From Candidatus Nitrotoga sp. HW29 (GTDB taxonomy: Bacteria; Pseudomonadota; Gammaproteobacteria; Burkholderiales; Gallionellaceae), in contig NZ_CAKMAA020000037.1 in assembly GCF_924101635.2 (NCBI RefSeq), positions 1-59,654 of the forward strand: a stretch of DNA of 59,654 bases. The letters run 5' to 3'. Below are positions 206 through 3,033 of this stretch, piece by piece. Position 1 is the stretch's first letter. Every line of letters starts with the position of its first letter. The notes under the pieces were generated by a model that searched no databases, was not told the origin of the DNA, and saw only the letters and a program-made list of their open reading frames with translations. A program made the translations under genes and the position numbers.

Positions 206-1483
206 ATGAGTACGTCCGCCACGCCGCAGATACCACCAACTGGGACGAGTAAAGCCGACCCGGACACCTTGGCCCTGCGTGCTTCGCCGCGCCCGGTCAC
301 CCGGCTGAACCGGCGCATGCTCGCGGTGCTTGCTGGAACGCTGGGCGTGATCATCCTTGGTGCCACGCTGTGGTCGCTGCAACCACGCCAGCGTGAACAC
401 AACGCTGCCACTGAGCTGTACAACGTTGATCGCGTCTCACGGGCCGAGAGTCTCGACCAGTTGCCCAAAGACTATTCCAAGGTGCCGGTGGCTGCCAAGC
501 CAGTGCCCGTTTTGGGCGAGCCATTGCCGGGCGACCTGGGTCCAGCCATCGTGCGTGCGCAGCGCAACGCCGGCGCGGGCGCACACCCACCTCCCGCGCA
601 GACTGGACGCATTGCACAGCCAGGTGATGCCGGGGAGGCAGCACGCTCAGCGGTTTTCTTTCGCAGCGGTGGGGTGAAGGCAGCACCGTCGCCCACTGTG
701 AGTACGACCATGCCCGAGCCGATATCGGGCAACCAGCCGTTCAATCCTATAACCTCTGTCGTTGCGTCGGCGCAGCCGACCGACCCGACGACGGTGCAGA
801 ACCGGCAGGATCAGAAGCAGGCGTTTGTCGCGAATGGCGGTGACACCGCCACCCGCAATCCGGCCAGCCTGCAACTGCCAGCCTCTCCCTACCAGGTGAT
901 GGCGGGCACCATCATTCCGGCGGCACTAGTGACGGGCATCAACTCCGACTTGCCGGGGCAGGTTATCGCAAACGTGACCGAGGCGGTCTACGACACAGCC
1001 ACGGGTCGCTTCCTGCTGATCCCCCAGGGGTCGCGCCTTATCGGCCGCTACGACAGCAAGGTGTCATTCGGTCAGCGACGCGTGTTACTTGTGTGGACGC
1101 GGTTGATCCTACCCGACACCTCATCCATTTCGCTCGACCGCCTGCCCGGCATCGACCCGGCGGGTTATGCCGGACTGGAAGATGGCGTCGATTGGCATTG
1201 GGATCGCATCCTCGCTGGTGCTGTGTTGTCCACGCTGCTCGGCGTGGGTGCCGAACTGGCTGCGCCTGATCGTAGCGGCAGCGATGGCAAGGTCATCATC
1301 GCCACGCGCCAGAGCGCGCAGGACACAGTGAACCAGGTCGGTCAGGAGATCACCAAACGCAACCTGAGCATCCAGCCGACGCTCACTATCCGGCCCGGAT
1401 TCCCGATGCGGGTAATGGTGAGCAAGGATCTGATACTGCGGCCGTATCAACCGCTGTTCTTCCAGAGGGGATCATCGCAATGA
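206..1483 (+). CDS. trbI: Conjugal transfer protein TrbI (VirB10-like)
   Basis: This 425-residue protein has the TrbI/VirB10 layout: a short cytoplasmic N-terminus, one membrane helix at about residues 36-56, a long Pro/Ala-rich periplasmic linker, and a conserved C-terminal beta-barrel domain from about residue 225. That domain holds the segments VMAGTIIPAAL, IPQGSRLIGRYDSKV and FPMRVMV. VirB10 proteins span both membranes and transmit energy to the outer-membrane core of the secretion channel. The gene follows trbG by two bases and overlaps the next gene by four (ATGA), indicating translational coupling. It is full length and shows no sign of damage. Confidence 0.93.
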   Translation: MSTSATPQIPPTGTSKADPDTLALRASPRPVTRLNRRMLAVLAGTLGVIILGATLWSLQPRQREHNAATELYNVDRVSRAESLDQLPKDYSKVPVAAKPVPVLGEPLPGDLGPAIVRAQRNAGAGAHPPPAQTGRIAQPGDAGEAARSAVFFRSGGVKAAPSPTVSTTMPEPISGNQPFNPITSVVASAQPTDPTTVQNRQDQKQAFVANGGDTATRNPASLQLPASPYQVMAGTIIPAALVTGINSDLPGQVIANVTEAVYDTATGRFLLIPQGSRLIGRYDSKVSFGQRRVLLVWTRLILPDTSSISLDRLPGIDPAGYAGLEDGVDWHWDRILAGAVLSTLLGVGAELAAPDRSGSDGKVIIATRQSAQDTVNQVGQEITKRNLSIQPTLTIRPGFPMRVMVSKDLILRPYQPLFFQRGSSQ

Positions 1484-1746
1484 GTACAACCAATAGCAAG
1501 CTGCGTCTGGGGCCGCTGCCCAAGACCGAGACAGTCAAAATCACTATTGCACTCACCAGCGTGTTGAAGGGCGATTTGGAACGCTACGCCGCGCTGCATG
1601 CTCAGACCTACGGCGAGCCGATTGATGCCGCGACGCTGATCCCGCACATGCTCGAAGCGTTCATGGCGCGGGATCGAGGGTTTAAGCGAGCAGCGCTACT
1701 GCGTACCGACGCTACACAAAGAAATGAAAAAGCCGCCCCTGGTTGA
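1480..1746 (+). CDS. DUF2274 domain protein of the conjugation cluster
   Basis: This 88-residue protein has the pattern LRLGPLPKTETVKITI near its N-terminus and the segment LKGDLERYA, characteristic of the DUF2274 family, which sits directly after trbI in many integrative conjugative elements. Its function is unknown; the small size and basic charge would fit a DNA-binding or regulatory role, but that is a guess. It overlaps trbI by four bases. It is the last protein gene before the proposed element end, and its stop lies 20 bases from the 3' end of the convergent tRNA-Leu gene. Confidence 0.85.
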   Translation: MSTTNSKLRLGPLPKTETVKITIALTSVLKGDLERYAALHAQTYGEPIDAATLIPHMLEAFMARDRGFKRAALLRTDATQRNEKAAPG

Positions 1747-1766
1747 ACAAGGACGGCTCTCCAAAT

Positions 1767-2087
1767 TGGTGCCCGAGGCCGGAATTGAACCGGCACGACC
1801 ATTTCGAGTCGAGGGATTTTCTTACCACTTCGGCTTTCGCCGCCAGCGCGAACGCTGTTCGTGGTCTGGAGCACGCCTTCACCATAGCCTTGCGGCCGTA
1901 GGTGCCCGCCGTCTGCTCTCTACACCTTCCCTCGAATCTTTCGATCCGGGGCTTGGCTCGGTATTGGCTCGGATGCTTGCAGCATCCAGGGCTTTCGCCG
2001 AATTTGACGGGCTTCACCTCCGGGGTTTCCCCTGGAGGGCTCAAATTGCTTTAAGTCCCTTGTGTCTACCAATTTCACCACTCGGGC
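1767..2087 (-). tRNA. tRNA-Leu(UAA) interrupted by a group I intron
   Basis: On the minus strand, the 5' exon (2053-2087) starts GCCCGAG, has the Leu D-arm GAAATTGGTAGAC and ends in the anticodon loop with ...GGGACTT. The 3' exon (1767-1820) starts AAAATCCCT, carries a long variable arm (CGAC/GTCG stem), a T-arm GCCGGTTCAATTCCGGC, then CTCGGGC and an encoded ACCA. Joining them gives an 89-nt tRNA with anticodon loop CTTAAAA (anticodon UAA), anticodon stem AGGGA/TCCCT and a matching acceptor stem. The insertion point, after U34, is the same as for the cyanobacterial tRNA-Leu intron. No good -10 box lies directly upstream; a promoter at 2377-2406 may read through. Confidence 0.9.
1821..2052 (-). 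ncRNA. Group I self-splicing intron (IC3-like) in tRNA-Leu(UAA)
   Basis: The 232-nt insert has the conserved core of the bacterial tRNA introns known from Azoarcus and cyanobacteria. It starts with AATTTGAGCC (P1/P2 side). It holds GTCAAATTCGGCGAAAGCC (1989-2008, P3/P4-P6), TACCGAGCCAAGC (1951-1963), GGAAGGTGTAGAGA (about 1917-1930, P7 side) and GCTATGGTGAAGGC (1875-1888), and ends in GCCGAAGTGGTAAG with the terminal G at 1821. The 5' exon ends in U, as needed for the U-G splice pair. It has no open reading frame for a homing endonuclease. The core motifs match closely enough that it is probably active, but splicing has not been shown. Confidence 0.9.
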
Positions 2088-2117
2088 TAGCTTGGCTCGT
2101 TGCCGAACCAATGTTTC

Positions 2118-2134
2118 GCCTAGCTACGCTAGGC
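2118..2134. other. Perfect hairpin between the two tRNA-Leu sequences
   Basis: GCCTAGC, loop TAC, GCTAGGC form a perfect 7-bp stem 31 bases upstream (minus strand) of the intron-bearing tRNA-Leu. No U-run follows on the minus strand. It could be a recombinase arm site of the element end, a processing signal between two tandem tRNA units, or a weak terminator; the sequence does not decide. Confidence 0.4.
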
Positions 2135-2281
2135 TTGTTTCAAATGTACTTCTCTACTGACTCCTACATGACACCTAGCAGCCAGTGGGCTGTTGGGGCC
2201 ATTTGCACTAAAGCCCGGGAAACCCGCGCCATTTCAAGCTCTGCGCCAACATCTCTGATGAGAAAAAGACTTGACAAAGGA

Positions 2282-2322
2282 GATTTTAAGTCCGTTGTGT
2301 CTACCAATTTCACCACCCGGGC
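2282..2322 (-). pseudogene. 5' fragment of a second tRNA-Leu(UAA), cut at the anticodon stem
   Basis: On the minus strand this 41-nt piece reads GCCCGGG, the Leu D-arm GAAATTGGTAGAC, stem ACGGA, loop CTTAAAA, then TC, where the expected stem partner TCCGT breaks off into unrelated sequence. Acceptor and anticodon stem differ from the complete intron-bearing copy (GCCCGAG, AGGGA), so it is another allele, not a simple duplication. It looks like the resident gene split by integration of the element; the missing 3' half would then sit at the far end of the element. Confidence 0.8.
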
Positions 2323-2376: not shown

Positions 2377-2406
2377 ATTATACAGAGATGCCCACCACGT
2401 TAGCAA
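2377..2406 (-). promoter_or_regulatory. Candidate promoter of the resident tRNA-Leu locus
   Basis: On the minus strand TTGCTA (2401-2406), an 18-base spacer and a perfect TATAAT (2377-2382) lie about 55 bases upstream of the tRNA-Leu fragment. There is no terminator with a U-run before the intron-bearing tRNA-Leu, so this promoter could drive it by read-through. Motif-based prediction only. Confidence 0.5.
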
Positions 2407-2688: not shown

Positions 2689-2764
<76 letters not shown>

Positions 2765-2817
2765 CCTTCTTGGGAAAGTATCTGGCTTTCCCTTATTTCT
2801 TAAAGCATGCGCAACAT

Positions 2818-2891
2818 GGCGGGGTGGCAGAGTGGTCATGCAGCGGCCTGCAAAGCCGTGTACGCCGGTTCGATTCCGACCCCCGCCTCCA
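2818..2891 (+). tRNA. tRNA-Cys(GCA)
   Basis: This is a 74-nt cloverleaf: acceptor GGCGGGG pairing with CCCCGCC, anticodon loop CTGCAAA (anticodon GCA), T-arm CCGGTTCGATTCCGA with one mismatch, encoded TCCA. It is co-oriented with tRNA-Gly. In many proteobacteria a tRNA-Leu(UAA) gene belongs to this cluster; here the Leu copies lie on the other strand to the left. Confidence 0.96.
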
Positions 2892-2916
2892 TTTCAAGTG
2901 TACTTGGCCCAAATTT

Positions 2917-2947
2917 TTGTCCGTGGATTTTTTTGCTCTGTTATAAT
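2917..2947 (+). promoter_or_regulatory. Candidate promoter of tRNA-Pro
   Basis: A perfect TATAAT at 2942-2947 lies 9 bases before the tRNA-Pro 5' end. The best -35 is TTGTCC at 2917-2922 with a long 19-base spacer. Confidence 0.55.
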
Positions 2948-2956
2948 TCGCACTTT

Positions 2957-3033
<77 letters not shown>

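What the first reader, a model, noticed from the sequence alone, without database searches (positions are those of the whole stretch)
1767..2322. The element appears to have cut the resident tRNA-Leu(UAA) at its anticodon and brought a complete replacement
A 41-nt 5' piece of a different tRNA-Leu(UAA) allele ends at the anticodon stem (2282), exactly where the foreign, GC-richer segment begins. Usually such elements restore the 3' half of the target tRNA. Here a complete gene with its own acceptor and anticodon stems is supplied 195 bases further in, and it contains an intron. Having the intron in the anticodon loop could protect the carried tRNA gene from being attacked itself by the integrase, since its attachment core is interrupted. 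That last idea is speculation but testable.
Basis: inference. Interest (0 to 1): 0.85.

Follow-up and report, generated by a model that had tools for sequence, protein, structure and literature searches.

The report
Mobile element with intron-shielded replacement tRNA
A mobile DNA element cuts its host's leucine tRNA gene in two when it inserts and brings its own complete copy, which is interrupted at exactly the cutting site by an intron (or in related elements altered by one base), apparently so that the element's own enzyme cannot attack the replacement.

Summary
The window holds one end of an integrative conjugative element (ICE). The resident tRNA-Leu(UAA) is split: its 5' half is at 2322-2282, and the predicted orphan 3' half lies on another contig of the same genome (C12:20161), beside a tyrosine recombinase gene. 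Eleven of 18 same-genus genomes have the intact intronless gene at this place. The two halves share only the anticodon-loop core, so attP restores nothing. Instead a complete tRNA-Leu(UAA) sits at 2087-1767, with a 232-nt group I intron between positions 34 and 35.

The arrangement is widespread. Of 80 related integrase loci, 76 abut a tRNA-Leu 3' half. A replacement gene was found in 70 of the 80 genomes: 47 have an intron, 22 (alphaproteobacterial CAA elements) are intronless but carry U32 instead of C32, 1 has the loop intact. The inferred 7-bp crossover overlap is the anticodon loop, so 69 of 70 replacements have lost it as DNA. In 67 of 67 readable pairs the replacement has the same anticodon as the cut gene.

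An integrase-resistant replacement is the best explanation, but recombination and splicing were not tested. Split-and-replace ICEs are already published in Pasteurellaceae; my searches found no account of the shield.

The parts
2282..2322 (-). Orphan 5' half of the resident tRNA-Leu(UAA), host side of the junction (attL-type end)
   Evidence: Identical to intact genes of relatives up to ACTTAAAATC
2284..2290 (-). CTTAAAA, the 7-nt anticodon loop (positions 32-38), inferred crossover overlap
   Evidence: Shared by both junctions and by the empty site; CTTAAAA in 46 and CTCAAAA in 30 of the 76 tRNA-bound attR ends
2088..2281 (-). Probable P' arm of the attachment site, between the junction and the replacement gene
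   Evidence: Conserved spacing of 194-245 bp between orphan half and replacement (same motif to same motif) in the 67 of 73 pairs that the script read
2158..2177 (-). Two direct repeats TAGGTGTCA / TAGGAGTCA, 11 bp apart, candidate arm-type integrase sites; a like pair lies on the integrase side (CAGGAGCCA / TAGGAGCCA)
   Evidence: shuffled copies of this P' arm give a mean of 0.05 matches
2053..2087 (-). Replacement tRNA-Leu(UAA), 5' exon (35 nt), ends at U34
1821..2052 (-). Group I intron, 232 nt, between positions 34 and 35
   Evidence: Rfam RF00028 33.4 bits, E 1e-6, below cut-off; in 21 aligned genes (20 from elements or element-like loci, 1 resident) 40 of 85 consensus pairs of exons plus intron have compensatory changes
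1767..1820 (-). Replacement tRNA-Leu(UAA), 3' exon (54 nt) with CCA
1727..1762 (-). Terminator-like stem-loop with T run behind the replacement gene
   Evidence: 2 found in the region on both strands, 0.9 expected
2377..2406 (-). Promoter-like site upstream of the orphan half, pointing into the element
   Evidence: 1 found, 0.4 expected; consensus match only
206..1483 (+). trbI-like conjugation gene of the element
   Evidence: Pfam TrbI E 1.3e-63
1480..1746 (+). DUF2274 gene, last gene before this end
   Evidence: Pfam E 3.5e-24
2689..3033 (+). Host flank: tRNA-Gly(GCC), tRNA-Cys(GCA), tRNA-Pro(GGG)
   Evidence: same cluster beside the intact tRNA-Leu in relatives

Best explanation
This is one end of an integrative conjugative element whose tyrosine recombinase crosses over inside the anticodon loop of tRNA-Leu(UAA) and splits the gene. 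The attachment site carries no matching 3' half, so the cut gene is not rebuilt. The element instead supplies a whole tRNA-Leu(UAA) about 200 bp inside the 5'-half junction. A working copy with an uninterrupted loop would itself be a target, so the copy is made unrecognisable as DNA: a group I intron splits the 7-bp overlap between positions 34 and 35 and is removed only from the RNA. Elements of the same family at alphaproteobacterial tRNA-Leu(CAA) reach the same end with U32 in place of C32. In the pairs read, the replacement lies downstream of the orphan 5' half on its strand, so it is probably read from the captured host promoter. Shown: the split, both ends, the empty site, the replacement, the position of the intron or base change, and the match of anticodon to target. 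Inferred: splicing, refractoriness to the integrase, and promoter capture.
For: Far end and empty site. Tyrosine recombinase with arm-binding domain beside the far end. 76 of 80 related integrase loci abut CTTAAAA or CTCAAAA followed by a tRNA-like 3' half (tRNA-Leu by eye), with 71 distinct 3' halves. Replacement in 70 of 80 genomes: 47 intron, 22 U32, 1 intact (tally). Orphan half and replacement have the same anticodon in 67 of 67 pairs read, 39 UAA and 28 CAA. On a quick integrase tree the target changes 3 times and the replacement type 3 times; the alphaproteobacterial UAA/intron elements L113, L124 and L135 lie inside the otherwise CAA/U32 group. One genome (G444) has both a UAA and a CAA element, each with its own intron-bearing isoacceptor. 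All 67 orphan 5' halves that the script read have C32, although U32 occurs in 22 of 71 CAA and 17 of 79 UAA matches among the 150 listed for the phylum. Two elements at non-tRNA sites kept the exact 7 bp (L071, L129). ARAGORN reads 52 of 52 extracted spliced forms as tRNA-Leu (a few are duplicates or not from an element).
Against: L105 (Azospirillum rugosum) carries an intronless replacement with the loop CTCAAAA intact. Group I introns in bacterial tRNA genes usually lie in the anticodon loop, so the position alone is weak evidence, and U32 is a natural variant that other ICEs use as a target (Pasteurellaceae core GATTCAAAATC). Intron-bearing tRNA-Leu(UAA) also sits beside tRNA-Cys, as at a resident place, in genomes with no element seen (L148, L149). 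Independent switches are few (3 changes on the tree). One origin of all replacement introns is not excluded. In 10 of 80 genomes no replacement was found; 9 of these are MAGs by title, the tenth (L102) is at a non-tRNA site with CTTGAAA and has an intact tRNA-Leu(UAA). One MAG (G473) holds an additional intact C32 tRNA-Leu(CAA). No recombination, splicing or expression was measured.
Confidence: 0.72

Rival explanations
1. Split and replacement are real, but the intron is a passenger: the element picked up an intron-bearing tRNA-Leu by chance, and U32 in the alphaproteobacterial elements is only the ancestry of the gene they picked up.
For: Intron-bearing tRNA-Leu genes at resident-like places exist (L148, L149). 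The introns of beta- and gammaproteobacterial elements form one related group, so few acquisitions are needed. L105 shows that an unshielded copy can persist.
Against: 69 of 70 replacements lack an intact overlap, by two different routes. Target and replacement type change together on the tree. Eleven of 18 same-genus genomes have the gene intact and intronless, so the intron is not simply common in the hosts.
Confidence: 0.2
2. The replacement gene mainly makes the element hard to lose (addiction) or frees it from needing a matching 3' half (broad host range). The intron serves expression control or intron spread, not shielding.
For: The 3' halves vary with the host (71 distinct of 76) and hosts span alpha-, beta- and gammaproteobacteria (names, classes recalled), so a carried 3' half would often mismatch the host 5' half. 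Intron-bearing copies without an orphan half nearby (L144, L145, L274) look like leftovers that could not be lost.
Against: Explains the complete gene but not why the loop itself is changed by either an intron or one base. These benefits do not exclude shielding.
Confidence: 0.06
3. Assembly artefact or unrelated tRNA gene fragments brought together by chance.
For: The window contig ends about 2.3 kb inside the element, and the two ends lie on different contigs of a draft genome.
Against: The same structure was found in G010 and in dozens of other genomes.
Confidence: 0.01

Closest known systems
Pasteurellaceae ICEs (ICEPmu1, ICEMh1, ICEHin1056 family)
   Same: [quoted passage not shown] PMC6861422, passages).
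   Different: Target is tRNA-Leu for UUG with core GATTCAAAATC (U32). No intron or altered core in the replacement is mentioned in the passages seen, and no shielding idea. Integrases were not compared here.
tRNA-integrating genomic islands (Islander / Campbell model)
   Same: Tyrosine integrase, crossover at the anticodon loop (class A of Islander).
   Different: Islander's rule is that the island attP carries a fragment that restores the target (PMC4383910, passages); here it carries only the loop core and a separate whole gene.
tRNA-Leu(UAA) group I introns of cyanobacteria and plastids, and tRNA introns of proteobacteria
   Same: Group I intron in the anticodon loop of tRNA-Leu(UAA) (PMC4033280, passages).
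   Different: Those are described as introns of resident genes. Here the intron sits in a gene carried by a mobile element, and in the CAA genes aligned (4 of 21 rows) it follows C34, making a C-G instead of U-G pair at the 5' splice site (columns 42/54).
Archaeal tRNA introns as protection of host tRNA genes against viral integration (Randau and Soll hypothesis)
   Same: An intron at the anticodon breaks attB (described in PMC4090602 and PMC4033280, passages).
   Different: There the host protects itself; here the invading element protects its own replacement gene, with a group I intron, in bacteria.

Membership tests
Integrative conjugative element (ICE) with tyrosine recombinase | Tyrosine recombinase gene beside one attachment end | tested here: met
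   L047:12670-13986, Pfam Phage_integrase E 5.5e-20 and Arm-DNA-bind_3 E 9.8e-16; its start lies 175 bases from the 3'-half junction (coordinates)
Integrative conjugative element (ICE) with tyrosine recombinase | Conjugation genes | tested here: met
   TrbI and DUF2274 in the window; coupling protein, type II/IV secretion ATPase (T2SSE), TrbE-type ATPase, TrbL and TrbI in the related A. temperans element. A relaxase was not looked for, and the window's own element was not seen whole.
Integrative conjugative element (ICE) with tyrosine recombinase | Excision to a circle and transfer | not testable with these tools
   Needs PCR and mating
Island that restores its tRNA target (Islander rule) | attP carries the tRNA fragment that rebuilds the target | tested here: not met
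   Junctions share only the loop core; 3' halves vary with the host
Pasteurellaceae split-and-replace ICEs | Disrupted tRNA-Leu at both ends plus a complete copy on the element | tested here: met
Pasteurellaceae split-and-replace ICEs | Common descent of integrase and element backbone | not tested
   No Pasteurellaceae genome was fetched
Group I intron (RF00028) | Score over the family cut-off | tested here: not met
   33.4 bits against 50. E 1e-6, full model length, last intron base G and U-G pair at the 5' splice site, covariation in 40 of 85 pairs of the consensus still argue for a group I intron
Group I intron (RF00028) | Self-splicing | not testable with these tools
   Needs RNA work

The most novel reading that the evidence does not exclude
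A widespread family of proteobacterial ICEs destroys an essential host tRNA gene at each tRNA insertion and carries an integrase-resistant replacement. Resistance arose in two ways, by a group I intron used as camouflage of the crossover site and by a single base change in the 7-bp overlap. It is a natural counterpart of the cut-and-rescue design used in synthetic gene drives (that comparison is recalled, from no call), with promoter capture from the gutted gene.
Probability: 0.65. Interest if true: 0.9.

Novelty: new variant of a known kind. Interest (0 to 1): 0.85.

Why it matters
It would give group I introns in bacterial tRNA genes a concrete function, hiding a site from a recombinase, and help explain why such introns sit in the anticodon loop of genes on mobile elements. 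It shows a transfer strategy that needs no matching 3' half and so can cross bacterial classes. It makes a testable rule for host range (for this family, C32 hosts open and U32 hosts closed). It also makes the old proposal that tRNA introns protect against integration directly testable in a bacterial system with natural controls.

Tried and rejected
Assembly artefact: rejected because the structure recurs in many genomes and on single contigs. A second tRNA-Leu(UAA) in the window's genome: none found. A second intact UAA gene in other hosts: looked for only where one search gave extra matches. Of 20 such places fetched, 12 are tRNA-Leu(CAA) genes and 1 is an intact tRNA-Leu(UAA), in G448, the genome of L102 at a non-tRNA site. 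One more is read by ARAGORN as tRNA-SeC; its letters show a tRNA-Leu(CAA)-like gene with three extra bases in the loop. In the other 6 ARAGORN found no gene; two of these are element ends with an intron-bearing copy. Independent origin of the alphaproteobacterial introns: the tree separates them from the beta/gammaproteobacterial ones, but one origin is not ruled out and several residents are long branches. An RF00028 search over 52 genomes with strict filters found a match in 17 and missed even the window's own genome, so it was not used as a count of absence.

Rows and limits: one search kept the best 80 of 204 relatives. One search covered 120 genomes but listed 150 matches from 81 of them; one is the window's own orphan half. 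The class labels of the tally were set by me from the calls. The pairing of integrase and replacement is by genome, and by contig in 32 of 70. L119 (G455) is counted as U32 from a pattern match on another contig that was not read in sequence; its own orphan half has no replacement nearby. L071, L102 and L129 are at non-tRNA sites; L130 has no attR on its contig. In L063 the orphan half is decayed. In L087 the replacement end differs in type from its nearest integrase kin and may belong to another element. In one search the script read 67 of 73 pairs; L083 and L113 show an orphan 5' half by eye but were missed by its pattern. The exception L105 was kept in every count. In some searches the script misread L148 and L200, which were left out; two rows (L172, L176) are the same gene. 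A class-wide search with the window's DNA matched 9 of 369 genomes at E 1e-20 or better, the window's own included; not all are elements.

Literature: nine searches gave no paper in their listings on an intron-bearing or recoded replacement tRNA on an ICE; the library holds only open papers. All papers cited were seen as passages only.

Full report
What is there. The window is the whole contig C37 of a 2.99 Mb draft genome in 96 contigs. On the minus strand, 2322-2282 is the 5' part of a tRNA-Leu(UAA), exact up to ...GGACTTAAAATC, after which the sequence is foreign. At 2087-1767 lies a complete tRNA-Leu(UAA): 5' exon of 35 nt ending at U34, intron of 232 nt, 3' exon of 54 nt with CCA. The joined exons are read by ARAGORN as tRNA-Leu(UAA). 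The intron matches Rfam Intron_gpI with E 1e-6 over the full model, but at 33.4 bits, below the cut-off of 50. In an alignment of 21 related genes, one of them resident, the consensus fold of exons and intron has 85 pairs, 40 of them with changes on both sides that keep the pair.

The element. TrbI and DUF2274 genes run up to this end. Using the intact gene of relative G006 as a query, the missing 3' half was found at G000:C12:20161-20245: CTTAAAATCCGTCGGGG...CACCA, followed by chromosome. Beside it lies a 438-aa tyrosine recombinase with an arm-binding domain. Own flanks from the two contigs are contiguous in relative G008 and overlap there by 9 bp, CTTAAAATC. Of 18 same-genus genomes searched, 11 have the intact intronless 89-nt gene beside the same tRNA cluster, one (G010) has the same split gene and intron-bearing replacement, two have the cluster without a tRNA-Leu in the stretch read, and four gave no stretch with the cluster. 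The window's genome has no other tRNA-Leu(UAA) that I could find.

A family. The integrase has 204 relatives in the genome collection; the best 80 were kept. In 76 of 80, the core CTTAAAA (46) or CTCAAAA (30) lies upstream of the integrase and runs into a tRNA-like 3' half, tRNA-Leu by eye; 71 of the 76 halves are distinct. The gap to the start of the integrase match is 175-223 bases, median 177 (the larger figures include 20 bases of the match). The 3' half therefore belongs to the host and not to the element. The other four are two elements at non-tRNA sites with the 7 bp intact (L071, L129), one at a non-tRNA site with CTTGAAA (L102), and one without its end (L130).

The other end. Searching the 80 genomes gave a replacement tRNA-Leu in 70 (tally). 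In 40 it is tRNA-Leu(UAA) with an intron, in 7 tRNA-Leu(CAA) with an intron, in 22 tRNA-Leu(CAA) without intron but with U32, and in 1 (L105) tRNA-Leu(CAA) without intron and with the loop intact. Of the 10 genomes without a find, 9 are MAGs by title and the tenth (L102) sits at a non-tRNA site and has an intact tRNA-Leu(UAA). Including the window, G010 and a second element in G444, a script read 67 of 73 pairs as orphan 5' half and replacement on one strand, 194-245 bp apart. Among these 67, the orphan halves all have C32; 46 replacements are interrupted, 20 have U32, 1 is unaltered. The anticodon class of orphan half and replacement agrees in 67 of 67 (39 UAA, 28 CAA), and it agrees with the attR core in the 64 that have one in the table. 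Two elements were fetched in stretches: 56.9 kb in A. temperans and 51.6 kb in Variovorax; the first carries a coupling protein, secretion ATPases, TrbL and TrbI.

Why this looks like shielding. The shared core is the 7-nt anticodon loop, positions 32-38. A 7-bp overlap matching an anticodon loop is the textbook form of a tyrosine-recombinase site (PMC8371274, passages). That identity in the overlap is needed for recombination is established knowledge of this enzyme class (recalled). The intron divides the loop between 34 and 35 in the intron-bearing copies that the script read correctly, and U32 changes its first base. Variovorax Root473 (G444) holds one element of each kind, each with its own intron-bearing isoacceptor. 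On a quick integrase tree the target changes 3 times and the replacement type 3 times; the alphaproteobacterial UAA/intron elements L113, L124 and L135 lie inside the otherwise CAA/U32 group, and L126 stands apart with L122. U32 is a common natural variant: among the 150 matches listed for the phylum (81 genomes), 22 of 71 CAA and 17 of 79 UAA matches have it, yet none of 67 orphan halves does. The taxa are not independent, so this is suggestive only. In 5,426 E. coli genomes (U32 in both genes, recalled) the integrase DNA matched in 2, on plasmids only; other reasons for this absence are possible.

Attachment site and expression. Tandem repeats of the type TAGGAGCCA, 11 bp apart, lie in both arms of the window's element (2177-2158, and beside the integrase). 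Of 63 readable P' arms, 45 have at least one such motif, against a mean of 0.05 in shuffled copies of the window's arm; 65 of 79 integrase-side arms have at least one. The constant spacing of about 200 bp is therefore probably the P' arm. A promoter-like site stands upstream of the orphan half and points into the element; a terminator-like hairpin follows the replacement. As the replacement lies behind the 5' half in the pairs read, expression from the captured host promoter is likely, but this is inference.

What does not fit. L105 has an unshielded copy. Intron-bearing tRNA-Leu(UAA) also occurs beside tRNA-Cys in two genomes without a visible element (L148, L149, by eye), and intron-bearing copies without an orphan half nearby exist (L144, L145, L274). 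One MAG (G473) has an additional intact C32 tRNA-Leu(CAA). The intron tree does not prove separate origins for the alphaproteobacterial introns. U32 loops are themselves targets of the Pasteurellaceae ICEs, so U32 would protect only against an attP with C32.

Known and new. [quoted passage not shown] That introns or split genes might block integration was proposed for archaeal hosts (cited in PMC4090602 and PMC4033280, passages). I found no account of an element whose own replacement gene is broken by an intron or recoded at the overlap. Verdict: the finding stands; the architecture is firm, and the shielding function is likely but untested.

Noticed in passing
L151 (plasmid pCTX-M3, NC_004464.2, about 61.6-62.2 kb): An end of an alphaproteobacterial-type element of this family (core CTTAAAA at a non-tRNA site, arm-like repeats, intron-bearing tRNA-Leu(UAA) with CCA) lies near aac(3)-IId; a 371-bp stretch of it matches 1,317 plasmid records, 1,310 of them at 99% or more. 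That resistance region may have come through such an ICE.
   Followed up: partly
L168, L219, L227, L229 (columns 42/54 of alignment A1): In the aligned tRNA-Leu(CAA) replacements the intron follows C34, giving a C-G pair where the other 17 rows have U-G at the 5' splice site.
   Followed up: partly
G428:C11:11959-12049 (L211, L268): A tRNA-Leu(CAA)-like gene of a Comamonas MAG carries three extra bases (CTC) in the anticodon loop, possibly a scar of imperfect excision or an assembly error.
   Followed up: no
L047 (G000:C12, about 6.0-9.0 kb): Gabija-like pair (GajA 1.5e-179 on the part held, GajB 2.1e-261 in PADLOC) in the element about 11-14 kb inside the integrase end, with HipA-like and AAA/STAND-like ATPase genes.
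   Followed up: partly
L183 / L071 and L245 / L129: Two elements sit at non-tRNA sites that keep the exact 7 bp CTTAAAA or CTCAAAA while the flanks differ, a hint that the overlap matters most.
   Followed up: partly
L144, L145, L146, L274: Intron-bearing tRNA-Leu genes without an orphan half seen nearby, perhaps replacement genes kept after the element decayed.
   Followed up: no
G000:C82:1600-1686: 97% copy of 87 bp of the DUF2274 region, so the genome may hold a second related element.
   Followed up: no
L153, L154, L155, L157, L162, L169, L173: Other group I introns in resident tRNA genes, apparently of other amino acids, in some carrier genomes.
   Followed up: no
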